From the NCBI RefSeq assembly GCF_022346925.1, contig NZ_JAKRNJ010000003.1:186001-250000 (forward strand): a stretch of 64,000 nt of DNA, given 5' to 3'. Positions 21,481 to 46,351 of this stretch are shown piece after piece. Below the pieces are notes generated by a model that was given only the letters and a program-made list of their open reading frames with translations, made no database searches and was not told the DNA's origin. This DNA comes from Microvirga sp. ACRRW (GTDB lineage: Bacteria > Pseudomonadota > Alphaproteobacteria > Rhizobiales > Beijerinckiaceae). The translations under genes were made by a program, and so were the position numbers. Position 1 is the first letter of the stretch. Each line of letters begins with the position of its first letter.

Positions 21481-22923
21481 TCAGCAGCAGCCCGCAGGTT
21501 CCGCAACTTTCCCAGCGGGCTGGATCAGCTCGACGTCGGAGGGGCTGCATCCGCAGCCGGACTTGCCCTCAGCCTTGGCCTCGGCATCCGCGACGCAGCA
21601 GGCGTCGCTCTGTGAGGGAGCAGGTCCTCCGCAGCACTCCAATGATGGCCCTGCATTCGGGACAATGTTGGTCGAACACACACCTGTCTCCGGCAGGACG
21701 AGGTGAACGTCGTCGGCCCCTGCGAGGTCGCCGGCGATGGCCGCAACGACGGAGCGGACTTGCTCGTAGCCCGTCAGCATCAGGAATGTCGGAGCGCGGC
21801 CATAGCTTTTGATGCCGACCGTGTAGAAGCCTGGTTCCGGATGGGCAAGCTCACGATGACCGTGCGGTGGCACGGATCCGCAGGAATGCAGATTGGGATC
21901 GATCAGCGGGCCAAGCGCCTTCGCGCTTTCCAGCCAAGGGTCGAGATCGAGCCGCAGCTCCCGGGTCAAGTTGAGATCGGGACGCTGTCCGGTCGACACA
22001 ACGATCCTGTCGATCGGACCGAGTTCGCGGATGCCGCCGGCGGTCTCGCCCTCGAGCATGACCTGATTGCCGATAGCCGTCACGCGGGTTGCGGAGAAGC
22101 CGGAAACCAGAGCGATACGCCCGCTGTCGACGAGTGCTTTGAGGCTGGAGCCGAGTTCGCCGCGCGCCGGCAACTGGTCAGCGCGCCCGCCGCCATAGAC
22201 CCGCATGAGATTCTCGCCACGGGTTGTCCAGATAATGGACGTTTCGGGGCTTCTCTCAGCCAAGCGGGCCAGATCGAGCAACACGTTCGCCGCCGAATGC
22301 CCGGCGCCGACGACGAGGATTGTCTTGCCCTCGTAAGCCGGGCGGTCGCGCCCGAGCACATCCGGAATTCCGTATGCGATACTCCCGGCATTCTCGGCCT
22401 CGCCCTCAGCAAGGATGCCGCCTGCGCCGAGCGGGTTCGGAGCTGTCCATGTGCCGGAGGCATCGATCACCGCTCGCGCAAGGTCGCGCCGGATCATGCC
22501 GCTACCGTTGGAAACCGCAAGGACAAATGGCTTGGTCTCGCGACCCTTGCTGAGCACCTTGTCGGCGCCGAGGCGAGTGATCGCTTTGACTTGAACGCCC
22601 GTCTCGATCACGGCTGCCATCTCAGGTGTGGCGGCTAGCGGCTTTAGATAGGCGTCGTACAGATCCGATCCCGTTGGCATCGCCTTGCCGGAGGGCTCCT
22701 GCCAGCCATGGGATTGGAGAAGCGCGCGGGCCGCCGTGTCGGTGTTGTACTCCCAGGGCGAGAACAGGCGCACATGACCCCAGTCTCGGACATTGGCGCC
22801 GACCGTTGCTCCCGCTTCGTAGACCTTCACGGACATCCCGCGTTGGATCAGATGGGCGGCGGCGGCAAGGCCGACGGGACCGGCGCCGACGACGGCGACG
22901 GGGAGGCTCTCAAGCGAGGTCAT
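21481..22923 (-). CDS. arsO: Arsenic-cluster FAD/NAD(P)-dependent oxidoreductase (ArsO-like) with Cys-rich tail
   Basis: The 480-residue flavoprotein has an N-terminal FAD-binding GxGxxG (VVGAGPVGLAAAAHL), a second Rossmann NADPH motif (ILVVGAGHSAANVLL) and a late FAD contact (RIVVSTGQRPDL), as in flavin monooxygenases. The last ~60 residues carry nine cysteines in CC, CC, GCGC and CC clusters, reminiscent of metalloid-binding ends. The ATG at 22923 follows a TCCTGGG-rich region on its strand. It lies 98 bp downstream of arsR2 with an inverted repeat between, so it is probably arsenic-regulated. Substrate and reaction are not established. Confidence 0.72.
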   Translation of the reverse strand: MTSLESLPVAVVGAGPVGLAAAAHLIQRGMSVKVYEAGATVGANVRDWGHVRLFSPWEYNTDTAARALLQSHGWQEPSGKAMPTGSDLYDAYLKPLAATPEMAAVIETGVQVKAITRLGADKVLSKGRETKPFVLAVSNGSGMIRRDLARAVIDASGTWTAPNPLGAGGILAEGEAENAGSIAYGIPDVLGRDRPAYEGKTILVVGAGHSAANVLLDLARLAERSPETSIIWTTRGENLMRVYGGGRADQLPARGELGSSLKALVDSGRIALVSGFSATRVTAIGNQVMLEGETAGGIRELGPIDRIVVSTGQRPDLNLTRELRLDLDPWLESAKALGPLIDPNLHSCGSVPPHGHRELAHPEPGFYTVGIKSYGRAPTFLMLTGYEQVRSVVAAIAGDLAGADDVHLVLPETGVCSTNIVPNAGPSLECCGGPAPSQSDACCVADAEAKAEGKSGCGCSPSDVELIQPAGKVAEPAGCC

Positions 22924-22981
22924 GGGACAGTTCTCCTGGGGTCGATCGGCGGCACGGAATGGCATCGGCCTCTCTCTTCGT

Positions 22982-23021: not shown

Positions 23022-23339
23022 TCAGGCGGCATTGTCCGTCTGAGTTGCGCATCCTGCGTCGGCGCAGCACTCGTCGGCGAGATAGCCGATGAGGCCATTC
23101 ATTGCCGGGTAACTCGCTCGGCAGATCAGGGTCGTGGATTGCCGCTCCTGTGTGACCAGCCCGGTCAGCAGAAGCCGCTGGATATGGTGCGACAGCGTCG
23201 AAGGCGGAATCCCAAGGCGCTCTTGGATTTGCCCGACAGGCAGGCCGGCTTCCCCGGCACGCACCAGCAAGCGGTAGATTTGGAGACGGGTGACATTCCC
23301 GAGCGCTTCGAGCTGCTTGGCTGCTTGTTCGACTTTCAT
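23022..23339 (-). CDS. arsR: ArsR-family metalloregulator (second copy)
   Basis: The 105-residue winged-helix repressor has the recognition region GIPPSTLSHHIQRLLLTGLV and the beta wing QERQSTTLICRAS. The C-terminal cysteines (DECCADAGC) resemble the C-terminal arsenite-binding Cys triad of Acidithiobacillus-type ArsR. The ATG at 23339 starts the conserved MKVEQAAKQLEALGNVTRL; an upstream TTG at 23375 is less likely. It is upstream of arsO and divergent from the RuvC-like/kinase unit. Confidence 0.85.
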   Translation of the reverse strand: MKVEQAAKQLEALGNVTRLQIYRLLVRAGEAGLPVGQIQERLGIPPSTLSHHIQRLLLTGLVTQERQSTTLICRASYPAMNGLIGYLADECCADAGCATQTDNAA

Positions 23340-23379
23340 GGAAATAAGGTAGAGCCGATCCCAGGCGCTGGTCAACAGC

Positions 23380-23473: not shown

Positions 23474-23929
23474 ATGATAACCATCGGCATACGCGCGGCG
23501 CCACGGGTGGTCACCTTTGCAGTCTATGACTCGGAGGCTGAGCGGATCATCAATGTCGAAGAAATCAAAATCCCTGCTGCCTTCTCTATGCCGGACGGTT
23601 TGAAGTATCTTCGCAGCAATCTTCTGGATGTCTTGCGCGAGTACGAGGTCGGGCAGGCTGGCGTGCGAGTAACCGAGCCGAGCGCGCAGTCTCCCAGTGT
23701 CGAGCGGATCCAGATCGAAGGGGTGATCCAAGAGGCCTTCGCCAGTAGCAATTTGGCGAAGTATTACGTCGGGCAAATCTCGTCGATTTCGTCCCGCCTC
23801 GGCATTGATCGCGCCCGCTTTAAGCCGCTAGTCGATGGCGAGAATGCATACGACATCGAGAACTGGGACAAAATGACGAAAGAGCAACGCGAAGCCGTGC
23901 TCTGCGCCGTAGGGGCGACGAATGCTTAA
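23474..23929 (+). CDS. RNase H/RuvC-fold-like protein of unknown function
   Basis: The 151-residue product fits an RNase H-like fold: strands MITIGIRAAP, VVTFAVYDS and VEEIKIP, a long helix (LKYLRSNLLDVLREYEV), a strand AGVRVTEPS, then IQIEGVIQEAFASS and a C-terminal helix KMTKEQREAVLCAVG. The acidic residue on the fourth strand (VTEP) is kept, but the first-strand Asp of active RuvC enzymes is replaced by Arg (GIRA), so catalysis is doubtful. It is the first gene of a three-gene unit. Its last 8 nt overlap the kinase start, implying translational coupling. The fold call is by pattern only; no function is recognised. Confidence 0.55.
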   Translation: MITIGIRAAPRVVTFAVYDSEAERIINVEEIKIPAAFSMPDGLKYLRSNLLDVLREYEVGQAGVRVTEPSAQSPSVERIQIEGVIQEAFASSNLAKYYVGQISSISSRLGIDRARFKPLVDGENAYDIENWDKMTKEQREAVLCAVGATNA

Positions 23930-24965
23930 ACCGTACCAGACAGGTCAGGTCACTTTCGACCTGATCAAGGAGATCGGCGCCGATGGCCGCAACTCCAAGA
24001 CCTTCGTGTCCCGGGATCATCAGCTCGATGCCGAGATCGTAATCAAGAAGATCGACAAGAAGACGCTAGCCTCACCCGGAAATTTCTTTGACGAGTCGAA
24101 GGCGCTGTATGCAAGCGCTCATCCCAACGTCGTGCCGATCCATTATGCATGCGAGGATGTCGACGCGATCTATCTGGCAATGCCGTACTATCGAAAGGGC
24201 TCAGTCAAGGGATTGATCACCGATCGCCATCTCAGTGTGCGCAGGATCGTGACGCTGGGCTGCCAAGTTCTGACGGGCCTTCACAACATCCATTCGAAGA
24301 AGTTGATCCACTTCGATGTCAAGCCGGACAACATTCTGCTGTCGGAGCGTGAAGAGGCGCTCCTGTCAGACTTCGGGCAGGCGAAGCAAATGAACTTCGT
24401 CGGTAAAGCGGCTCAAGATCGTCACTACACCCCGATGATTCCGCCGGAAGCAACGAAGACCGACCATTTCGACGTCACCTTCGACATCTACCAATTCGGG
24501 CTGACGCTCTACCGCATGTGCAATGGAAACAACGCCTTCTACCGACAACTGGCGAAATACGGTCCTTACAACACCTTCGATCGCGATAGCTTCCGGTTCG
24601 ACTTGCATAACGGTCGCTTCCCGGATCGGAAAATCTTCCCGCCGCACATTCCAGCCAAGCTAAAGAACATCATCAAGACCTGCCTGGAGCCGAACCCAAA
24701 GGATCGCTACGGATCGGCCCTTGAGGTGTCCAATGCCCTGGCCGACATCAGCGGCCAGATCCTGGACTGGCACTTTGTCGAAACCCCTGATACAAGCACA
24801 TGGGTGAAGAACGAAAACGGAACAAAATACGAGCTAACCCTTAAGCTCGATGGAACTTCCGAGTTCTATAGAAGCGTTAACGGTGGTCAGCGGCGGCGTA
24901 TCATGGAAGGATGCAAGCAGTCGCTGTCGCATAAGGATGTGCAGAAGCTCTTAGGTTCTTACTGA
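23922..24965 (+). CDS. Serine/threonine protein kinase (non-RD, variant HFD loop)
   Basis: The 347-residue product has an N-terminal eukaryotic-like kinase domain (about 10-275). It has a degenerate glycine loop (EIGADGRNSKTF), the ATP-binding Lys in EIVIKKID, a helix C Glu in DESKAL, the catalytic loop LIHFDVKPDNILL, DFG in LLSDFGQAK and a PPE motif in place of APE. The HRD arginine is Phe (HFD), making it a non-RD kinase. The last ~70 residues (from ILDWHFVETP) form a small unassigned domain. There is no TM segment or PASTA repeat, so it is cytoplasmic. It overlaps the RuvC-like gene by 8 nt and the next small gene by 1 nt. Confidence 0.85.
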   Translation: MLKPYQTGQVTFDLIKEIGADGRNSKTFVSRDHQLDAEIVIKKIDKKTLASPGNFFDESKALYASAHPNVVPIHYACEDVDAIYLAMPYYRKGSVKGLITDRHLSVRRIVTLGCQVLTGLHNIHSKKLIHFDVKPDNILLSEREEALLSDFGQAKQMNFVGKAAQDRHYTPMIPPEATKTDHFDVTFDIYQFGLTLYRMCNGNNAFYRQLAKYGPYNTFDRDSFRFDLHNGRFPDRKIFPPHIPAKLKNIIKTCLEPNPKDRYGSALEVSNALADISGQILDWHFVETPDTSTWVKNENGTKYELTLKLDGTSEFYRSVNGGQRRRIMEGCKQSLSHKDVQKLLGSY

Positions 24966-25153
24966 TGGTCAAGATCAAGAACGATCCGAGCAGGTATGTA
25001 AGACGTTCCACTCTTGCGGGACGGCGGAGCAGTGCCGTGGGCGAGAAGAGCGACCAATCCTCCCGAAAGCGGGAGCGAGAATTCCTGGTCGCGCCAATCG
25101 ACGACAATTTCTACATCGACTTCAGGGTGAAGCCCTCGCGGAAGCAAACCTAG
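24965..25153 (+). CDS. Small basic Ser/Arg-rich protein of the kinase unit
   Basis: The 62-residue product starts within the stop of the kinase (TGATG), a strong sign of coupled translation and of a real gene. The N-terminal two thirds are rich in Arg, Lys and Ser (STLAGRRSSAVGEKSDQSSR). A short ordered end (FLVAPIDDNFYIDFRVKP) follows. It overlaps the convergent acr3 gene by 4 bp. Its composition would suit a kinase substrate or nucleic-acid-binding partner; that is inference. Confidence 0.6.
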   Translation: MVKIKNDPSRYVRRSTLAGRRSSAVGEKSDQSSRKREREFLVAPIDDNFYIDFRVKPSRKQT

Positions 25154-26226
25154 AAATTCCCTTTGATGGTTCCGCGACCCGCTGTTGCGACCTTCGGCAA
25201 CTGTTCACTTCGCTCGTACCAGCCCTGGCTGCGATTCACGATCCACACGACCGAGAGCATCACGGGCACCTCGATCAGGACGCCGACGACCGTCGCCAAT
25301 GCCGCCCCCGAGTTGAATCCGAACAGGCTGATGGCTGCTGCGACCGCGAGTTCGAAGAAGTTGCTGGCGCCGATCAGGGCGGAAGGACCAGCCACACAAT
25401 GCTGCTCGCCTGCAATCCGGTTCAGGAGGTAAGCGAGCCCCGAATTGAAATAGACCTGGATCAGGATCGGTACAGCCAGCATGGCGATGACGAGGGGCTG
25501 CGCGAGGATCTGCTCACCCTGGAAGCCGAACAGCAGTACGAGTGTTGCGAGCAGAGACACCAACGACAGTGGCTGAAGAATTCGCAGCAAGCGCAAAAGA
25601 GCCGCTTCGCTACCCTGTGCGAGCAGGCGCCCGCGCAGAACCTGGGCGAGGATCACCGGGATGACGATGTAGAGCACGACCGAAAGCAGGAGCGTGTCCC
25701 ATGGTACCGTGATCGCGGACAGTCCGAGCAGCAAGCCGACGATGGGCGCGAAGGCCACGACCATGATGATATCGTTGAGCGCCACCTGTGACAGCGTGAA
25801 ATGTGGCTCTCCCTTCGTCAGATGACTCCACACGAACACCATCGCCGTACAGGGCGCCGCCGCGAGAATGATGAGGCCTGCGATGTAGGAGTTGATCTGG
25901 TCGGCGGGCAGATAGGGCTTGAACACGTAGCCGATGAAGAACCAACCGAGCGCCGCCATCGAGAACGGCTTGACGGCCCAGTTGATGAACAGCGTCACGC
26001 CGATGCCGCGCCAATGTTCGCGTACCCGTCCGAGCGATGCGAAGTCGATCTTGATCAGCATCGGAATGATCATGAGCCAGATCAGGGCGGCGACAGGCAG
26101 ATTGACCTTCGCGATCTCCAGCGCACCGATAGCATGGAATAGCCCCGGGAAGGCATGGCCGAGAGCAATGCCGGCCACGATGCACAGGGCAACCCAAACG
26201 GTCAGGTAGCGTTCGAAGACGGACAT
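25150..26226 (-). CDS. acr3: ACR3-family arsenite efflux transporter
   Basis: The 358-residue, ten-TM protein is an ACR3 arsenite permease: the ATP-independent inner-membrane exporter that uses the proton gradient. The conserved TM4 cysteine is in LAAAPCTAMVFVWSHL, and the TM9 region (AGPSALIGASNFFELAVA) is typical. It is the last gene of arsR-arsC-acr3, 8 bp after arsC. Its 3' end meets the small basic protein gene of the kinase unit head on. Confidence 0.92.
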   Translation of the reverse strand: MSVFERYLTVWVALCIVAGIALGHAFPGLFHAIGALEIAKVNLPVAALIWLMIIPMLIKIDFASLGRVREHWRGIGVTLFINWAVKPFSMAALGWFFIGYVFKPYLPADQINSYIAGLIILAAAPCTAMVFVWSHLTKGEPHFTLSQVALNDIIMVVAFAPIVGLLLGLSAITVPWDTLLLSVVLYIVIPVILAQVLRGRLLAQGSEAALLRLLRILQPLSLVSLLATLVLLFGFQGEQILAQPLVIAMLAVPILIQVYFNSGLAYLLNRIAGEQHCVAGPSALIGASNFFELAVAAAISLFGFNSGAALATVVGVLIEVPVMLSVVWIVNRSQGWYERSEQLPKVATAGRGTIKGNF

Positions 26227-27343: not shown

Positions 27344-28174
27344 ATGGTTGGCTCCAAGGGAAAGGTAGAACGCTTCGCAGCAGCGCATCCTGTGTTTACG
27401 CGCGAGATGTTTCGATCGGATCTGTTCCCTGAACAGCCCTTATCTTCTGCCGATTCTCTGCTGCGGTATCACACGGCCAGTGGGCGATTCAAACACGTGG
27501 CTCCCGGCGTTTACGCCGTCGTGCCTGCTCATCTGAGACATATGTCTTTCCAGCCTGATAGGTATCTGGTCGCTTCGATGATCAGGGCCGACGGGGTTAT
27601 TGCGTTCCACTCGGCTCTCGATCTTCACGGCCTGGCCTATTCTGACGCGAGCGAGATCCTCGTCCTCAGCCATAGCCGTCCCGGCGCAGTCAAAACGGAA
27701 ATCGGTACCGTTCGCTTCGTCATGTACCCAGCGGCTCTGAGGCGGCAGCACAGCGAAAGGGACGGAGTAACAACGCTTGACCGGCGCGGCCTTGACGTGG
27801 CGATAACGGGTCTTGAACGCACTCTCGTCGATTGTCTGGAATATCCTGATTACGCTGGCGGAATCGAGGAGCTGGCCCATGCCCTCAATGCAGTCGAAGC
27901 CATAGACAGCGAGTTCCTGGTCGAGATGACTCTGAGGCGACGAAGCCGTGTCCTCGCAGGAATGGTGGGCTGGTGGCTTGAAACTCGGTCGCAGGACTTC
28001 CTGGTGGACCCTAGGCTTCTGGACCGCCTCCGCGCAGAGATGCCGAGCAGCATGAGACCCGTCCTAGGCACGTCAGCTGAAAATGGATACGCCGTGCCAT
28101 CATGGCGCATCTTGCTTCCCGAGCTGATCGCCAATCCCAGATTCGAAGACGTTCCACAGGGACCTGCCTTCTGA
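27344..28174 (+). CDS. abiEi: AbiEi antitoxin and repressor (type IV toxin-antitoxin)
   Basis: The 276-residue product has an N-terminal winged-helix region (DSLLRYHTASGRFKHVAPGVYAVV) and the C-terminal antitoxin domain typical of AbiEi (LERTLVDCLEYPDYAGGIEELAHAL). AbiEi opposes the toxin without stable complex formation and represses the operon through upstream inverted repeats, two of which are visible. Its TGA overlaps the toxin ATG (TGATG). The length is normal for full-length AbiEi. Confidence 0.88.
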   Translation: MVGSKGKVERFAAAHPVFTREMFRSDLFPEQPLSSADSLLRYHTASGRFKHVAPGVYAVVPAHLRHMSFQPDRYLVASMIRADGVIAFHSALDLHGLAYSDASEILVLSHSRPGAVKTEIGTVRFVMYPAALRRQHSERDGVTTLDRRGLDVAITGLERTLVDCLEYPDYAGGIEELAHALNAVEAIDSEFLVEMTLRRRSRVLAGMVGWWLETRSQDFLVDPRLLDRLRAEMPSSMRPVLGTSAENGYAVPSWRILLPELIANPRFEDVPQGPAF

Positions 28175-29169
28175 TGATATCCATTGAACGCCTCGAAAAA
28201 ATCGCAGCCGAAACCTCGTTCCAGCCGGCCACGGTCGAGCGGGTGATCCGGTTGATCGATGCATTGGATCGCATCAACCGTGATCCGTTTCTCGGCTCGC
28301 GGTTTGCCCTGAAGGGCGGTACCGCCCTCAATCTTTTCTACCTCGCGCTTGATCGCCTGTCCGTCGACATCGACCTGAACTACGTCGGCTCATTGGATCG
28401 GGAGCAGATGCTTGAAGACAAGAAGAAAGCAGAGCAGGCGATCACGAGCCTGATGCGGCGTCTCGGCTACTCGGAACAGCGGGTTCCGGACCAGGACCAT
28501 GCCGGCGGCAAGTGGATCTTCAGGTACGGATCCGCCTTTGGTCAGCGCGGAACGCTCGAGATTGACACGAACTATCTCTACCGCGCGCCTTTCTTCGGCA
28601 CCCAGCAAATGGCCAGCGCGGAACTTGGAGGATATCGGGCTACGGACATCAAGATCGTGGATCTCAACGAGATCGCCGCCGGTAAGCTTGTCGCCCTCGT
28701 GACCCGACGAGCGTCACGAGACCTATATGATACCTGGCGGCTGCTCGACCGAAATGATCTCGATTGGGATAAGATCAAGGCCGGAACCCTCGCGATCGGC
28801 GCGGCATCCCGCGATTACGATTGGCGTAATGCATCGCTGGATACCTACGAACTCGATTATCAGGAACTGCAAGCGAAGTTGATCAGCGTTATACGGCAAG
28901 ACGCACTTACGGGCTTCGAGGAGCCTCGGCAGTGGGCCCAGACCATTCTTGAAACATGTAAGGATAGGCTCGCTGGCCTGTTTACTTTCTCCGACGGGGA
29001 GCGCGCGTTCCTGGATGCTGTCTACGAGGAGGGGCGGATCGATACATCGACGCTTCCTGTCGACGACAATATCAAACGCCAGATAGAGGCCTTTCCGGCT
29101 CTTCGGTGGAAGGCCCACAATGTGGCCGAGTTTCGGAAATCGACCAGGAACTCAAGCCATTCTCCATAA
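28174..29169 (+). CDS. abiEii: AbiEii nucleotidyltransferase toxin
   Basis: The 331-residue product carries the AbiEii/DUF1814 nucleotidyltransferase signature: FALKGGTALNLFYLAL, then RLSVDIDLNYVG with the DxD metal site. A Lys-containing motif (AAGKLVALVTRRASRDLYD) follows. Related toxins transfer nucleotides to tRNA or otherwise block growth, and AbiE systems can abort phage infection. The start is coupled to abiEi. The catalytic residues look intact. Confidence 0.9.
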   Translation: MISIERLEKIAAETSFQPATVERVIRLIDALDRINRDPFLGSRFALKGGTALNLFYLALDRLSVDIDLNYVGSLDREQMLEDKKKAEQAITSLMRRLGYSEQRVPDQDHAGGKWIFRYGSAFGQRGTLEIDTNYLYRAPFFGTQQMASAELGGYRATDIKIVDLNEIAAGKLVALVTRRASRDLYDTWRLLDRNDLDWDKIKAGTLAIGAASRDYDWRNASLDTYELDYQELQAKLISVIRQDALTGFEEPRQWAQTILETCKDRLAGLFTFSDGERAFLDAVYEEGRIDTSTLPVDDNIKRQIEAFPALRWKAHNVAEFRKSTRNSSHSP

Positions 29170-40685: not shown

Positions 40686-41144
40686 ATGAGGCCTGAAAGC
40701 GGAATTCCGACAACAAAGGGTTCGCCGATCTTTCCTGCCGTGGCGCGGGCGATCAAAAAGCTCGGTCACGATATTTCCTTGGCGAGGCGCACACGGCGTA
40801 TCCCGGCCGAGGAATTCGCCGCGCAGATGGGGATCTCGCGGGCTACATTGTACCGCCTTGAGATCGGTGACCCGGGCGTTTCGCTGAATACGCTCGCTAT
40901 GGCTCTGTTCGCGCTCGGACGGCTCGATCTTCTCAGCAATCTCGTCGACCAACCCAAGGACGAGGTTGGCCTCATGCTCATGCGCCAAGACGCGCCGAAG
41001 CGGATCTCCAGGCGACGCGGCGGGCTTACGCGCCAAGGGGCTCCGAAGCAGATTTCCAGACGAGGCGGATCGCAATCCGAGATTCCGGACGATGCCGATG
41101 AATCCGAACCAGTGTCGACCAACGAGGGCTACGTGGGGTGGTGA
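40686..41144 (+). CDS. XRE antitoxin of a HipBA-like module
   Basis: The 152-residue protein carries an HTH domain (about residues 20-80): RRIPAEEFAAQMGISRATLYRLE and NTLAMALFALGRLDLLSNL. The C-terminal ~60 residues are a basic and polar tail with two similar repeats (APKRISRRRGG and APKQISRRGGS). It is coupled to the HipA gene by TGATG and preceded by three palindromic operators. It is longer than classical HipB (~90 residues). Confidence 0.85.
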   Translation: MRPESGIPTTKGSPIFPAVARAIKKLGHDISLARRTRRIPAEEFAAQMGISRATLYRLEIGDPGVSLNTLAMALFALGRLDLLSNLVDQPKDEVGLMLMRQDAPKRISRRRGGLTRQGAPKQISRRGGSQSEIPDDADESEPVSTNEGYVGW

Positions 41145-42451
41145 TGCCGACGCGCAAGATTTATGTCCGCATCGGTGCTGCGGCGGCTCCCGTTGGCGAA
41201 TTGATCGTCGACGTAGCAGGGAACCGAGAAACCTCGGCGTTCTCCTATGATCCAACTTGGCTCAAGTCGAGGAATGCCTTCCCGCTGGCACCGCACATGC
41301 CGCTCACTGAGACCCCTTTCTACATGAACAAGGCTGTCGGCGGCTCATCTTTGCCGTCACCGATAGCCGACGGCTCACCGGACTCTTGGGGGAGAGCCAT
41401 CATCAAAGCCGCCTTGGGCGGACGGGTGACGTCTGATCTCGATTATCTTCTGGAGTCGGACGATTTCCTCCGATCCGGCGCACTGCGCTACTTTGACGGT
41501 CCCGAAGCCGAGGCGATGGCTCTCGCACCTCCACGTGAAGGACTAGGCGGCGTATCGGTTCCAAGACTGCTCGATCTAAATCAGGTGATCGCGGAAGCCC
41601 GAGCGTTCGAGGCCGATCCCGTCCGTTATCGCGAGCGCCGCGCAGAGATGATGGGCGGCGGGCTGTTGAAGAACGCAGTTGGCTCGCTGGGGGGCGCTCG
41701 CCCGAAGGTGAATGCCCTTGCTGACGATGGATCGCTGTGGATCGTCAAGCTCGCCAAGATCGATGACCAGTACGCGATTGCGCGTGCAGAGGTCATGGCA
41801 TTGAGGCTTGCCGAGCGCGTCGGCATCTCAGCCTCCACTGCGGATGTCCTGGAGAGCGGCCAGCTCTTTCCGATCGCGAAGGTCAAGCGCTTCGACCGTT
41901 CCGGCAAGATCCGCATTCCATTTATCTCGGCCCAGACCTTTATGGGCCTGCCGGGAACCGATCCAGGGAACTACGTCGATGTCGCCCACCTGATGCTCGT
42001 GCATTCCGATGATCCAGAGGGAGACAGGCAAGAGCTCTATCGTCGGCTGATGTTCAACGTTCTCATCCAGAACACCGACGACCATCTGCGAAATCTCGGT
42101 TTCCTCTACCGAGGAAATGGCAAATGGGGGCTCTCTCCAGCCTTTGACATCAATCCCGTTCCGGAGGAGGGCACAACCTTGAAGACCGCAATCTCCGAGA
42201 TACATGGAAATGCCCTCGATATCGAGAAGGTAGTCGATGTGGCACCGTATTTCGGACTGAATGAGGACGAAGGACGTACGCTAGCCGCTGCGATGGCAAC
42301 CACGATCCGAGATGAATGGCGTCAAATCGGAGCAAGCGTCGGGATGACCTCCGCCGACTTCCGGGCGATCAGCCCTGCTATGAAAAACAGCCAGATTGAG
42401 CGCGCCATCCAATTCAATGTGGCTGCCGTTCCCGGAGCAACCCTCCCGTAA
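41144..42451 (+). CDS. HipA-like kinase toxin, second copy
   Basis: The 435-residue product is a HipA family kinase. The N-terminal domain has SPIADGSPDSWGRAIIK, and the core has LGGARPKVNAL (Gly-rich loop) and a catalytic loop NTDDHLRNLGFLY. SPAFDINPVP carries the metal-binding Asp. It differs clearly from the first HipA in the window (14612-15892), so it is not a recent duplicate. It is presumably a Ser/Thr kinase toxin neutralised by its XRE partner; the target is unknown. Confidence 0.88.
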   Translation: MPTRKIYVRIGAAAAPVGELIVDVAGNRETSAFSYDPTWLKSRNAFPLAPHMPLTETPFYMNKAVGGSSLPSPIADGSPDSWGRAIIKAALGGRVTSDLDYLLESDDFLRSGALRYFDGPEAEAMALAPPREGLGGVSVPRLLDLNQVIAEARAFEADPVRYRERRAEMMGGGLLKNAVGSLGGARPKVNALADDGSLWIVKLAKIDDQYAIARAEVMALRLAERVGISASTADVLESGQLFPIAKVKRFDRSGKIRIPFISAQTFMGLPGTDPGNYVDVAHLMLVHSDDPEGDRQELYRRLMFNVLIQNTDDHLRNLGFLYRGNGKWGLSPAFDINPVPEEGTTLKTAISEIHGNALDIEKVVDVAPYFGLNEDEGRTLAAAMATTIRDEWRQIGASVGMTSADFRAISPAMKNSQIERAIQFNVAAVPGATLP

Positions 42452-43162: not shown

Positions 43163-46100
43163 TTATTCCACTGCACGCGACCATGCTGGTGTAGACTTCT
43201 GGCCTTTGACATCCGGGATCCCGTCGACAACGCTGACGGTGTAAGGCAGGCGGTAACCCTTGATCAGCGCGTAAATGGCCGGGATGACCACGAGCGTCAG
43301 CACGGTCGAGGAAATCATGCCGCCGATCATCGGCACGGCGATGCGCTGCATGATCTCGGATCCGGTTCCGCTGCTCCACAGGATCGGAACCAAGCCTGCT
43401 ATGATGGCGATCACCGTCATCATCTTGGGCCGTACACGCTCCACTGCGCCGATCATGATCGACGCGTAAAGGTCAGCCCGAGTGAATGGGCGGCCTTGGT
43501 GCTCCCGCTCCGCCTGAACTTCCTGACGTGCGTGATCGAGGTAGATCAGCATGATGACGCCAGTCTCGGCAGCGACGCCGGCAAGCGCAATGAATCCGAC
43601 GGCGACGGCAACCGACATGTTGAAGCCGAGCCACCACATCAGCCAGATGCCGCCCACCAACGCGAACGGCAATGACAGCATGACGATGAGCGTTTCTGTC
43701 AGCGTCTTGAAGTTGAGGTAGAGCAGCAGGAAGATGATCAGCAACGTGAGTGGTACAACGGTCATGAGGCGGGCCTTGGCGCGTTCAAGGTACTCGAACT
43801 GCCCGCTCCATTGGGCATAGTAGCCCGGTGGGAACGTGACCTCGTTCGCAACCGCCTGCCGCGCCTCGGCGACGTAGCCGCCGAGATCGCGTCCGGTGAT
43901 GTCAACAAAGATGTAGACCGCGAGTTGGCCGTTCTCCGTGCGGATCGAGGTCGCGCCGCGGGTGAGCTTGACGCTCGCGACTTCGCCCAGGGGCACGGCG
44001 CCTCCGTTTGGCATCGGCACCTGCACTTCGGTGGCGATGGCCTGCGGGTTCGAGCGCAGCTCGCGCGGATAGCGCACGTTGACGCTATAGCGCTCGCGGC
44101 CCTCGACCGTGTTGGTCACCATTTCGCCGCCGAGAGCCGTAGCGATCACATCCTGCACGTCGCCGACGGTCAGGCCATAGCGTCCGAGCGCCATCCGGTC
44201 CGGCACGATGTCGAGGAAGTAGCCTCCGATCACCCGTTCGGCATAGGCGCTCGATGTGCCGGGTACCGCCTTGACCACAGCCTCGACCTGGCGCGCGATC
44301 TGCTCCATCTCCGCGAGGTCGGTACCGAACACCTTGATGCCGACAGGCGTGCGGATGCCCGTCGAGAGCATGTCGATGCGCGCCTGGATCGGCATCGTCC
44401 AGGCATTCGACACACCCGGGAACTGTAGCGCCTTGTCCATCTCGGCCTTGAGGCTGTCGATGGTCATGCCAGGCCGCCACTCGCTCTTCGGCTTTAGGGT
44501 GATGATTGTCTCGAACATCTCCGTCGGCGCCGGATCGGTGGCGGTCAGCGCCCGTCCCGCCTTGCCGTAGACGGAAGCGACCTCCGGAAAGGACTTGATG
44601 ATCCGGTCCTGGGTTTGCATGAGTTCGGCCGCCTTGGTGATGGACAGGCCCGGCAAGGTGGTGGGCATGTACATCAACGTGCCCTCGTTCAGGGCCGGCA
44701 TGAACTCGGAGCCGAGCTGGCGGGCCGGCCAGACCGTCACGCCGAGCGCCACGAGAGCGAGCACGATGGTGAGGCCTTTGGCCTTGAGCACGCCCTGGAT
44801 CACGGGCCTGTAGATCCAGATCAGGAACCGATTGATCGGGTTGCGGTGCTCCGGGACGATCCGCCCGCGCACGAAAAGTACCATCAGTGCGGGGACCAGC
44901 GTCACGGACAGGACGGCCGCCGCCGCCATCGCGAAGGTCTTGGTGAAGGCGAGCGGACCAAACAGGCGTCCCTCCTGCGCCTCCAGCGTGAAGATCGGCA
45001 GGAACGAGACCGTGATGATCAACAGGCTGAAGAACAGTGCGGGCCCAACCTCGCTCGCTGCCTTGATCAGGATTTCGACACGTGGCTGGTCCGGCGGCGC
45101 CCGCTCCAGGTGCTTGTGGGCGTTCTCGATCATCACGATGGCGGCATCGATCATCGCGCCGACCGCGATGGCGATGCCGCCCAGGCTCATGATGTTGGAC
45201 CCAAGCCCGAGGAGCTTCATGGCGCCAAACGCCATCAGGATGCCGACGGGGAGCATAAGGATGGCAACCAGGGCGCTGCGCAGGTGAAGCAGGAACACGA
45301 CGCAGACGAGCGCAACGATGACGCTCTCCTCGATGAGCGTGCCCTTGAGCGTCTCGATGGCGGCCTCGATCAGTTGCGAGCGGTCGTAGACGGGAACGAT
45401 CTCTGTACCTTTCGGCAAACTCGAAGCGACCTCGGTCAGCCGCGCCTTCACGCTCTCGATCACATTGAGCGCGTTGGCTCCGAACCGTTGCAGGACGATG
45501 CCGCTTGCGACCTCGCCTTCGCCGTTGAGCTCGGTGATGCCGCGCCGCTCGTCGGGCCCGATTTCGACACGCGCGACGTCACCAAGGCGGAGCGGTGTGC
45601 CGGCGTCCGTCTTCAGGACGATGCTTTCGATGTCCTGGACGCTTTTCAGATAGCCACGGCCACGGACCATGAACTCGAACTCGGAGAGTTCAACCGTGCG
45701 ACCGCCGACATCGGCGTTGCTGGTACGGATCGCCTCCCGCAAGGCCGGGAGCGAGATGCCCTGGGCACGCAGCCGCCGCGGATCGACGATGACATTGTAC
45801 TGCTTGACGAAGCCGCCGACGCTCGCGACCTCCGCGACGCCTTCGCCCTTTGCGGCCGCGAACCGGACCACCCAGTCCTGAAGCGACCGCAACTCGGCCA
45901 AGGTCATGTTCTTGGCCATCACGGCATACTGGTAGACCCAGCCCACGCCCGTGGCGTCCGGGCCCAGGCTGGGGGTGACTCCGACGGGCAAACGCCGTGC
46001 GGCCGCGTTCAGGTACTCCAGCACCCGCGAGCGGGCCCAGTATGCGTCGGTGCCGTCCTCGAAGATGATGTAGACGAACGAGACGCCGAAGAACGAGAAG

Positions 46101-46351
46101 CCCCGCACCACTTTCGATTGCGGCACCGTCAGCATGGCCGTGGTGAGCGGATAGGTGACCTGATCCTCCACGACCTGCGGGGCTTGGCCCGGATACTCCG
46201 TGTAGACGATGACCTGCACGTCCGAGAGGTCGGGAATGGCGTCGAGCGGCAGGCTGCGCAGGGAGTACAGCCCCGCCGCGACGGCGAACACCGTTCCGAT
46301 CAGCACGAGCGTGAGGTTGCGGGATGACCACGCGATGAGGCGGGCGATCAT
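43163..46351 (-). CDS. cusA: CusA-type Cu(I)/Ag(I) RND efflux pump
   Basis: The 1062-residue HME-RND transporter has 12 TM segments and two large periplasmic loops. The three-Met copper site of CusA is kept in LMYMPTT, TEMFET and RIDMLSTG. The proton-relay region of TM4 is VGAMIDAAIVMIEN. It expels Cu(I) or Ag(I) from the periplasm or cytoplasm through an outer-membrane partner. It overlaps cusB by 4 nt (ATGA). No cusC outer-membrane gene is present here. Confidence 0.92.
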   Translation of the reverse strand: MIARLIAWSSRNLTLVLIGTVFAVAAGLYSLRSLPLDAIPDLSDVQVIVYTEYPGQAPQVVEDQVTYPLTTAMLTVPQSKVVRGFSFFGVSFVYIIFEDGTDAYWARSRVLEYLNAAARRLPVGVTPSLGPDATGVGWVYQYAVMAKNMTLAELRSLQDWVVRFAAAKGEGVAEVASVGGFVKQYNVIVDPRRLRAQGISLPALREAIRTSNADVGGRTVELSEFEFMVRGRGYLKSVQDIESIVLKTDAGTPLRLGDVARVEIGPDERRGITELNGEGEVASGIVLQRFGANALNVIESVKARLTEVASSLPKGTEIVPVYDRSQLIEAAIETLKGTLIEESVIVALVCVVFLLHLRSALVAILMLPVGILMAFGAMKLLGLGSNIMSLGGIAIAVGAMIDAAIVMIENAHKHLERAPPDQPRVEILIKAASEVGPALFFSLLIITVSFLPIFTLEAQEGRLFGPLAFTKTFAMAAAAVLSVTLVPALMVLFVRGRIVPEHRNPINRFLIWIYRPVIQGVLKAKGLTIVLALVALGVTVWPARQLGSEFMPALNEGTLMYMPTTLPGLSITKAAELMQTQDRIIKSFPEVASVYGKAGRALTATDPAPTEMFETIITLKPKSEWRPGMTIDSLKAEMDKALQFPGVSNAWTMPIQARIDMLSTGIRTPVGIKVFGTDLAEMEQIARQVEAVVKAVPGTSSAYAERVIGGYFLDIVPDRMALGRYGLTVGDVQDVIATALGGEMVTNTVEGRERYSVNVRYPRELRSNPQAIATEVQVPMPNGGAVPLGEVASVKLTRGATSIRTENGQLAVYIFVDITGRDLGGYVAEARQAVANEVTFPPGYYAQWSGQFEYLERAKARLMTVVPLTLLIIFLLLYLNFKTLTETLIVMLSLPFALVGGIWLMWWLGFNMSVAVAVGFIALAGVAAETGVIMLIYLDHARQEVQAEREHQGRPFTRADLYASIMIGAVERVRPKMMTVIAIIAGLVPILWSSGTGSEIMQRIAVPMIGGMISSTVLTLVVIPAIYALIKGYRLPYTVSVVDGIPDVKGQKSTPAWSRAVE

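What the first reader, a model, noticed from the sequence alone, without database searches (positions are those of the whole stretch)
23474..25153. Coupled RuvC-like / Ser-Thr kinase / small basic protein unit nested in an arsenic cluster
Seen: three plus-strand genes overlap by 8 nt and 1 nt and sit between two opposite-strand ars units (arsR2-arsO and acr3-arsC-arsR). The first product looks RNase H/RuvC-like but lacks the first-strand Asp. The second is a soluble kinase with HFD instead of HRD and an extra C-terminal domain. The third is Arg/Ser-rich and could be the kinase substrate. No known system with this exact composition was recognised. Inference: a phosphorylation-controlled defence or stress module that inserted into the ars locus.
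Basis: partly seen in the sequence, partly recalled or inferred. Interest (0 to 1): 0.8.

Follow-up and report, generated by a model that had tools for sequence, protein, structure and literature searches.

The report
Stk-type anti-phage kinase with dead RuvC
Three overlapping bacterial genes, sitting in an arsenic-resistance cluster, are a chromosomal relative of a phage-borne kinase reported to make infected cells abort phage infection, and it comes with two neglected partner genes, one of which looks like a DNA-junction-cutting enzyme that has lost its active site.

Summary
In detail: three coupled plus-strand genes (23474-23929, 23922-24965, 24965-25153) lie between acr3-arsC-arsR and arsR-arsO-like genes. 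They are not unrecognisable. Gene 2 is a full-length relative (37% identity) of Stk, the prophage 933W kinase reported to abort phage HK97 infection. Gene 1 is the neglected gene next to stk, called 'RuvC-like Holliday junction resolvase'. Its predicted structure is a whole RuvC fold, but Arg (49 of 49) replaces the first catalytic Asp. The kinase follows gene 1 in 52 of 53 genome loci; gene 1 precedes the kinase in 58 of 59 viral loci found by kinase alone; both exceptions are contig ends. A small, mostly basic third gene closes the operon. In three of five comparable Microvirga stretches the slot holds arsH instead. Neighbours of relatives are rich in defence and prophage genes. Best reading: an Stk-type abortive-infection operon in which a dead RuvC-fold subunit senses phage DNA metabolism and releases the kinase. 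The defence role rests on homology; the sensor role is inference. New: the obligatory three-gene make-up and its chromosomal, non-prophage spread. Gene 3 as kinase substrate is not supported (5 of 71 lack Tyr).

The parts
23474..23929 (+). Gene 1: 151-aa RuvC-fold protein with Arg7 and Arg65 where weak profile alignment places catalytic Asp and Glu of RuvC; proposed sensor/regulatory subunit
   Evidence: phrog_3875 E 1.3e-37; AF2 pLDDT 95.3; RuvC Z 18.6 over 147 residues; R7 49/49, R65 47/49, E140 49/49; hhalign column mapping
23922..24965 (+). Gene 2: 347-aa Stk-type protein kinase, proposed effector; HFD catalytic loop, single invariant activation-segment Tyr169, C-terminal beta domain
   Evidence: Pkinase E 4e-36; phrog_2361 E 2.4e-66; 37% to phage phi24B Stk over 95%; model pLDDT 89.4; residue counts
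24965..25153 (+). Gene 3: 62-aa basic small protein with an N-terminal Arg motif and a C-terminal aromatic motif; role unknown, proposed adaptor or inhibitor
   Evidence: third ORF at the same place in 105 loci (own copy included), 71 distinct proteins; dN/dS 0.11-0.50; motifs above shuffles
23022..23375 (-). Flank: ArsR-type regulator (with an ArsO-like gene 21481-22965) of the host ars cluster, not part of the module
   Evidence: HTH_20 E 9.6e-13; NCBIfam metalloregulator above cut-off; same order in relatives
25150..26226 (-). Flank: acr3 arsenite efflux gene; next to arsH in three of five relatives; here its end overlaps gene 3 by 4 nt
   Evidence: TIGR00832 acr3 E 2.2e-111

Best explanation
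This is a chromosomal Stk-type abortive-infection operon. Shown: gene 2 is a complete protein kinase of the 933W Stk clade. Gene 1 is its obligatory partner, with a RuvC fold and a ruined active site. Gene 3 is a small protein under purifying selection. The three are inherited as a unit. Inferred from the published Stk work: the kinase is silent in healthy cells, is switched on by an infecting phage, phosphorylates tyrosines and stops the cell before phage progeny are made. Inferred here: the dead RuvC subunit binds the kinase and senses phage recombination or replication (branched DNA, or a phage recombinase bound to it), which releases the kinase. Gene 3 binds as an adaptor or inhibitor through its short end motifs. 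Most likely autophosphorylation or specificity residue: Tyr169, the only invariant hydroxyl residue between DFG and PPE.
For: Homology to Stk and the adjacent RuvC-like gene in phages: 14 of 14 phage records with gene 1 also carry the kinase, and 5 of 5 plasmids, one with the kinase match in two pieces over 56%. Stk as a tyrosine kinase activated by HK97 and excluding it: passages in PMC3681748, PMC3564112, PMC6356687. Obligate linkage: 52 of 53 genome loci and 58 of 59 viral kinase loci; each exception is a contig end. Co-inheritance: mirror-tree r 0.905, 0 of 2000 permutations as high. RuvC fold: Z 18.6 over 147 of 151 residues. Dead site: R7 in 49 of 49. Kinase intact: K42, E58, D132, N137 and D150 invariant in 45 of 45; Y169 in 45 of 45. 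Neighbour ORFs match 48 and 113 PADLOC families, against 5 in the control. Stk expressed from pRM in stable lysogeny (passage in PMC3430580).
Against: No functional data exist for this member. It is only about 37% identical to phage Stk and is not in a prophage, so trigger and outcome may differ. The primary Stk papers were not readable, so whether genes 1 and 3 are needed there is unknown to me. The sensor role of gene 1 is inferred from fold only; no complex could be predicted. The neighbour test counts families, not proteins, and its control ORFs passed a different length filter. Module-carrying phages do encode RecT-family annealing proteins (12 of 29), so an annealing protein as such cannot be the trigger. 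In PMC6989128 (passages) a 933W lysogen excludes lambda about a million-fold and swapping lambda's immunity region restores plating; the passage does not tie this to Stk, but if Stk is the cause, lambda's trigger lies in or near that region and not in its Red recombination genes.
Confidence: 0.65

Rival explanations
1. A toxin-antitoxin unit: the kinase is a toxin held in check by gene 3 (a basic pseudosubstrate or docking peptide) or by gene 1; phage defence is only one of several triggers.
For: Tight coupling and a small partner gene closing the operon. Gene 3 carries a near-invariant Arg followed by a varying residue (S, A, D, E), as in pseudosubstrates (the comparison with pseudosubstrates is recalled). 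KKP is described as a prophage TA-based kinase system in PMC11341870 (passage).
Against: Gene 1, not gene 3, is the well conserved partner and is missing only at contig ends. Gene 3 is the least conserved part: a profile of the 49 other rows gives at most 0.5 bits to the Bacillota, Balneolota and Rhodothermota versions.
Confidence: 0.17
2. The module mainly controls lysogeny or prophage competition, in the manner of the Pseudomonas KKP module, and chromosomal copies are prophage leftovers.
For: Phage-type copies lie just behind a cI- or LexA-like repressor, and stk is expressed in lysogeny. Neighbour ORFs include phage genes.
Against: I saw no phage genes near the window copy, but ars, heavy-metal pump and AbiE genes. 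Gene 1 and kinase frames are intact in many chromosomal loci. 933W Stk is reported to act on another phage, HK97.
Confidence: 0.09
3. Gene 1 is a working nuclease or junction resolvase and is the effector; the kinase only regulates it.
For: Full RuvC fold, Glu68 in 47 of 49 and Glu140 in 49 of 49, and databases name it a resolvase.
Against: Arg replaces the first Asp in 49 of 49 sequences, and Arg or Lys sits at the aligned Glu in 49 of 49. A two-metal site can hardly be built this way (general knowledge of RNase H-fold nucleases). The genome has its own RuvC elsewhere.
Confidence: 0.05
4. The unit belongs to the arsenic response (a stress kinase serving the ars genes).
For: It sits inside the ars cluster here, and ars genes were found in the held flanks (up to 7 kb a side) of 4 of 53 genome loci (L008, L010, L011, L012).
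Against: 49 of 53 genome loci show no match to the window's ars proteins in the held flanks, though 18 of the 53 loci are cut short by contig ends. It is read on the opposite strand to the ars genes. The phage-type copies read have no ars genes beside them. 46 of 48 genomes of the same genus have no gene 1 match.
Confidence: 0.02

Closest known systems
Stk exclusion kinase of Stx phage 933W (and phi24B), with ST933Wp23
   Same: Kinase homology over nearly the whole length (37% over 95%), same order gene 1 - kinase - small gene, similar overlaps
   Different: In phi24B the operon lies in the immunity region behind cI; here it is a chromosomal cassette in a metal-resistance island. The papers I saw speak of the kinase; ST933Wp23 is only a table row.
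RuvC Holliday junction resolvase (PF02075)
   Same: Whole-length fold match, Z 18.6, rmsd 2.6 over 147 residues
   Different: No Pfam or PDB sequence match. Aligned catalytic Asp and Glu positions carry Arg. A canonical RuvC exists elsewhere in the genome.
Staphylococcus Stk2 and PADLOC PD-T4-6 kinases
   Same: Eukaryote-like protein kinases in phage defence; PD-T4-6 models match the kinase domain (E 9.5e-35)
   Different: Stk2 is described as a single-locus system (passage). The window kinase is a separate clade: 541 and 525 bits for the two members among 385 genomes, 164 for the next kinase.
KKP kinase-kinase-phosphatase module of Pf prophages
   Same: Multi-gene, phage-borne, kinase-based defence
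   Different: Ser/Thr kinases and a phosphatase by name; no RuvC-fold partner mentioned in the abstract start and passages seen

Membership tests
Stk (933W) exclusion module | Kinase homologous over its whole length to Stk | tested here: met
   36.8-37.1% identity over residues 1-331 of 347
Stk (933W) exclusion module | RuvC-like gene directly upstream and small gene directly downstream | tested here: met
Stk (933W) exclusion module | Tyrosine (auto)phosphorylation on phage infection | not testable with these tools
   Only indirect: Tyr169 invariant in 45 of 45
Stk (933W) exclusion module | Excludes a superinfecting phage (HK97) | not testable with these tools
   Reported for 933W in passages of PMC3681748 and PMC3564112
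Stk (933W) exclusion module | Located in a prophage immunity region behind cI | tested here: not met
   Window copy lies in an ars cluster; this is placement, not a molecular feature
RuvC Holliday junction resolvase | RuvC fold over the whole chain | tested here: met
   Predicted model: Z 18.6, 147 aligned
RuvC Holliday junction resolvase | Acidic catalytic residues | tested here: not met
   Position 7 is Arg in 49 of 49; position 65 is Arg in 47 and Lys in 2 of 49; column mapping by a weak hhalign alignment
RuvC Holliday junction resolvase | Pfam RuvC profile match | tested here: not met
   No RuvC match up to E 1
PADLOC PD-T4-6 / MADS mad6 | Kinase profile match over the kinase domain | tested here: met
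   mad6 E 4.6e-43, PD-T4-6 E 9.5e-35
PADLOC PD-T4-6 / MADS mad6 | mad6 by NCBIfam's curated cut-off (460 bits) | tested here: not met
   98.9 bits
KKP kinase-kinase-phosphatase | Second kinase and phosphatase gene in the operon | tested here: not met
   The operon holds one kinase. The nearby arsC matches the LMWPc family but stands in the ars cluster of relatives without the module.

The most novel reading that the evidence does not exclude
A Holliday-junction resolvase was stripped of its catalytic acids and turned into the sensor of a bacterial tyrosine-kinase immune switch. The dead RuvC subunit reads phage recombination (branched DNA or an Erf-type annealing protein) and licenses the kinase, with a small third protein as a further control part. 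The three-gene system occurs in records labelled with five phyla (one of them a single cyanobacterial MAG contig), on phages, plasmids and chromosomes. Hints: HK97, the phage excluded by Stk, has erf between genes 40 and 43 in its record, so by order at gene 41, and I recall orf41 as the published trigger. ERF has no match in 29 of 29 module-carrying viral contigs, against a match in 13 of 29 contigs of an HK97-like control set (biased control, related and possibly partial contigs). Against: lambda exclusion by a 933W lysogen maps to the immunity region, if that exclusion is due to Stk at all.
Probability: 0.25. Interest if true: 0.83.

Novelty: new variant of a known kind. Interest (0 to 1): 0.62.

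Why it matters
Stk of 933W is cited as an exclusion kinase, and a 2024 paper on kinase-based defence names only Stk2 as the other known case (passage). If the kinase does not occur without a dead RuvC-fold partner and a small third protein, the published system has two overlooked parts, and the question of what switches the kinase on becomes directly testable. It would also be a rare case of a recombination enzyme turned into an immune sensor, and of bacterial tyrosine phosphorylation used as an infection response far outside enterobacteria.

Tried and rejected
Arsenic-response module: rejected, because 49 of 53 genome loci show no match to the window's ars proteins in the held flanks and 46 of 48 genomes of the same genus have no gene 1 match.

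Active resolvase: rejected on the conserved Arg residues.

Chance co-occurrence or an unrelated kinase: rejected.

Gene 3 as a universal tyrosine substrate: not supported, because 5 of 71 distinct proteins lack Tyr. Ser/Thr phosphorylation of gene 3 is not excluded.

arsH displaced in every relative: not so. Of five same-genus stretches with the ArsO-like gene and arsR near acr3, three have arsH beside acr3 (L224, L227, L230) and two do not (L219, L223).

Non-AUG start of the kinase in five gammaproteobacterial loci (suggested): rejected on reading the DNA. An ATG lies one codon further on, in a TAATG junction.

Sequence route from gene 1 to solved RuvC structures: nothing (three chance hits). 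Profile-profile comparison with 19 relatives' RuvC proteins is weak (E 0.0035, probability 9%; reversed control E 0.4).

Gene 3 motifs: the patterns were written after looking at the sequences. The N-terminal one is permissive (67 of 71; shuffles mean 37, highest 48); the C-terminal one is clearer (61 of 71; shuffles mean 10, highest 21).

Promoter and terminator scans around the operon gave no more than shuffles.

Literature: searches for the three-gene composition or for RuvC together with Stk listed no paper describing it as a system. Only open-licence papers are held, and I saw listings and passages, not whole texts. PMC10789677 lists ST933Wp22 and ST933Wp23 in a table. The two primary Stk papers (2004, 2011) were not held. 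HK97 orf41 as trigger is recalled, not seen; a search for it found nothing relevant in the listing and in the one paper looked into.

Dropped rows: L020 (kinase frame ends early) and L031 (kinase end altered) were left out of the gene 3 counts. Of 429 neighbour ORFs found in 39 loci, 302 were picked and 296 printed; 187 from 38 loci were given to the family scans. I left out L026, a near copy of L025, and mostly short ORFs judged likely to be spurious. Many of the 48 and 59 viral loci are near-identical Stx-phage copies. For the ERF test, 29 long viral records were chosen from the module loci, and 29 of 80 long control records, leaving out HK97 itself.
Full report
What is there. Three plus-strand genes at 23474-23929 (151 aa), 23922-24965 (347 aa) and 24965-25153 (62 aa) overlap by 8 and 1 nt. 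On the minus strand they are flanked by an ArsO-like gene and arsR on one side and by acr3, arsC and arsR on the other (the ArsO and ArsC models match below their cut-offs). G+C drops to 52-57% over the operon, against about 60-66% in most of the neighbouring ars genes. The genus is inferred to be Microvirga: a same-genus genome, G387, has a contig of 67188 bases carrying the operon, the length of NZ_JALJRK010000030.1 of Microvirga sp. Mcv34.

How it sits in the ars cluster. Of 13 same-genus stretches taken around acr3, five (L219, L223, L224, L227, L230) have the ArsO-like gene and arsR near acr3 without the operon. In three of these (L224, L227, L230) arsH lies next to acr3, in the slot that the operon occupies here. 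The other two have no arsH in the stretch. The window holds no arsH. So the slot is variable, and the operon, or an event that brought it, may have displaced arsH; this is inference. Only 2 of 48 genomes of the genus and 2 of 385 of the class carry gene 1, the own genome included in both. The module is rare and patchy.

What the proteins are. Gene 2 is a protein kinase (Pkinase E 4e-36) and matches the phage family phrog_2361 at E 2.4e-66. Its best phage matches are the stk genes of Stx phages, 37% identical over 95% of its length. Lys42, Glu58, Asp132, Asn137 and Asp150 are invariant in 45 of 45 aligned kinases. HFD replaces HRD in 44 of 45. The activation segment has one invariant Tyr (169, 45 of 45). 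The model has a further small beta domain at 284-319 and an end helix. PDB kinase matches are many and top out at Z 28.4; the C-terminal domain was not tested alone.

Gene 1 has no Pfam match apart from one chance-level hit (DUF1289, E 0.23) but matches phrog_3875, named RuvC-like resolvase, at E 1.3e-37. AlphaFold2 gives pLDDT 95.3. The best fold matches are RuvC chains: Z 18.6, rmsd 2.6, 147 aligned residues (Pseudomonas RuvC), with the other seven top RuvC chains at 17.0-18.4 and the next family at 13.6. Foldseek agrees. Residue 7, where RuvC has its first catalytic Asp, is Arg in 49 of 49. Residue 65 is Arg in 47 and Lys in 2; residue 140 is Glu in 49 of 49. A weak profile alignment with 19 RuvC proteins of relatives puts Arg7 on the Asp, Arg65 on the Glu and Glu140 on the last-helix Asp; the naming of those RuvC residues as catalytic is recalled. 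The genome has a normal RuvC elsewhere.

Gene 3 has no family match. An ORF of 50-72 aa follows the kinase in 105 loci (71 distinct proteins, own copy included), mostly with a spacing of -4, -1 or +2 nt. Net charge is positive in 70 of 71. A permissive N-terminal Arg pattern is seen in 67 of 71 (shuffles mean 37, highest 48) and a C-terminal aromatic pattern in 61 of 71 (shuffles mean 10, highest 21). dN/dS is 0.11-0.50 in ten pairs, some with few changes. The Bacillota, Balneolota and Rhodothermota versions are alike only in place and size: a profile of the other 49 rows gives them 0.5 bits or less.

One unit. A genome scan with gene 1 gave 53 loci. Kinase coding sequence follows at once in 52, and the last contig ends 3 nt after gene 1. 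In two of the 52 the kinase frame ends early or is altered at its end (L020, L031); the third ORF is present in the other 50. A viral scan with gene 1 gave 48 loci, all with kinase coding sequence beside it (interrupted in L069, L078 and L086) and all with the third ORF. The converse test, a viral scan with the kinase alone, gave 59 loci: gene 1 is upstream in 58, and the last contig begins at the kinase. Many viral loci are near copies. In 385 genomes of the class, the two strong kinase matches (541 and 525 bits) both have gene 1; the third (164 bits, a genome 87% complete) has no gene 1 match. Gene 1 and kinase distances correlate at r 0.905 in 45 loci, never reached in 2000 permutations. 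The tree holds Alpha-, Beta- and Gammaproteobacteria, a cyanobacterial MAG contig lying beside Betaproteobacteria (mis-binning not excluded), Bacillota, Balneolota and Rhodothermota (quick method, long branches warned of). In complete E. coli genomes, 223 of 5426 carry DNA like the phage version.

What is known of relatives. [quoted passage not shown] It is cotranscribed with cI and aborts HK97 infection (PMC3564112) and is expressed from pRM only in stable lysogeny (PMC3430580). The neighbour ST933Wp23 appears as a table row named RuvC-like resolvase (PMC10789677). The primary papers could not be read.

Surroundings. The window has an AbiEi/AbiEii pair 0.2 kb beyond the ars genes (27344-29169; PADLOC E 1.2e-83 and 2.3e-98). 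The Mesorhizobium copy has DarT and macro-domain genes directly upstream. Among 187 neighbour ORFs of 38 loci, PADLOC families matched at E 1e-10 or better numbered 48 (93 ORFs) and 113 (94 ORFs), including CBASS cyclase and effector, SduA, IetA, OLD, DarG and FRG-domain candidates. A control of 94 ORFs from 19 evenly placed stretches of five genomes of the same class matched 5. These are counts of families, not of proteins, and the ORF filters differed. Phage genes (NinG, S24 repressor, capsid, tail) are also among the neighbours.

Mechanism. Shown: the parts, their linkage, the predicted fold, the lost active site and the intact kinase. From published work on the relative: an infection-triggered kinase with abortive outcome. 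Inferred: gene 1 is the sensor or activator. The argument is that a fold made for branched DNA, kept whole but made unable to cut, and not separated from the kinase, is best explained as a recogniser. HK97 gives a lead: in its record erf, an annealing recombinase gene, lies between gene 40 and gene 43, and I recall that HK97 orf41 is needed to activate Stk. Of 29 module-carrying viral contigs 0 have an ERF match, against 13 of 29 lambdoid control contigs chosen by an HK97-like ninB gene. The control is biased to HK97 relatives and the contigs are neither independent nor known to be complete, so this is a hint only. Against it: RecT-family proteins are found in 12 of the 29 module carriers, so a trigger would have to be narrower than any annealing protein; and a 933W lysogen's exclusion of lambda is relieved by swapping lambda's immunity region (PMC6989128 passages), which does not point to the Red genes if Stk is the cause.

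Verdict. The finding is real, and its defence reading is well supported. It is a chromosomal member of the Stk kind whose three-gene make-up seems not to have been described as a system in the papers that the searches listed. I rate it a new variant of a known kind.

Noticed in passing
27344-29169: AbiEi/AbiEii toxin-antitoxin/defence pair on the plus strand between the arsR and a MerR-family regulator next to a heavy-metal P-type ATPase, so two defence units sit in one metal-resistance island.
   Followed up: partly
41138-42451: HipA-like kinase gene (HipA_C E 1.2e-40, Couple_hipA E 9.1e-08) near heavy-metal genes including an RND-type pump at 43163-46351.
   Followed up: no
L002:3779-5499: DarT and macro-domain genes lie directly upstream of the module on a Mesorhizobium megaplasmid.
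   Followed up: no
L008, L010, L011, L012: In Aureimonas and Methylobacteriaceae the module is again within 7 kb of ars genes, in another arrangement; metal islands may be a repeated carrier.
   Followed up: partly
L020:7449-7715, L031:7449-8660, L069, L078, L086: Interrupted or altered kinase frames with gene 1 still readable in a few loci, as expected if the kinase is costly.
   Followed up: no
L003:4110-4451, L004:1637-1978: A DUF3024 ORF lies between the repressor and gene 1 in phage-type copies (ST933Wp24 in 933W). I noticed none in the window but did not search for it there.
   Followed up: no
control genomes: The phage family of gene 1 (phrog_3875) also matched one of 14 control genomes, Bacteroides ihuae, which would be a further phylum; the place was not read.
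   Followed up: no
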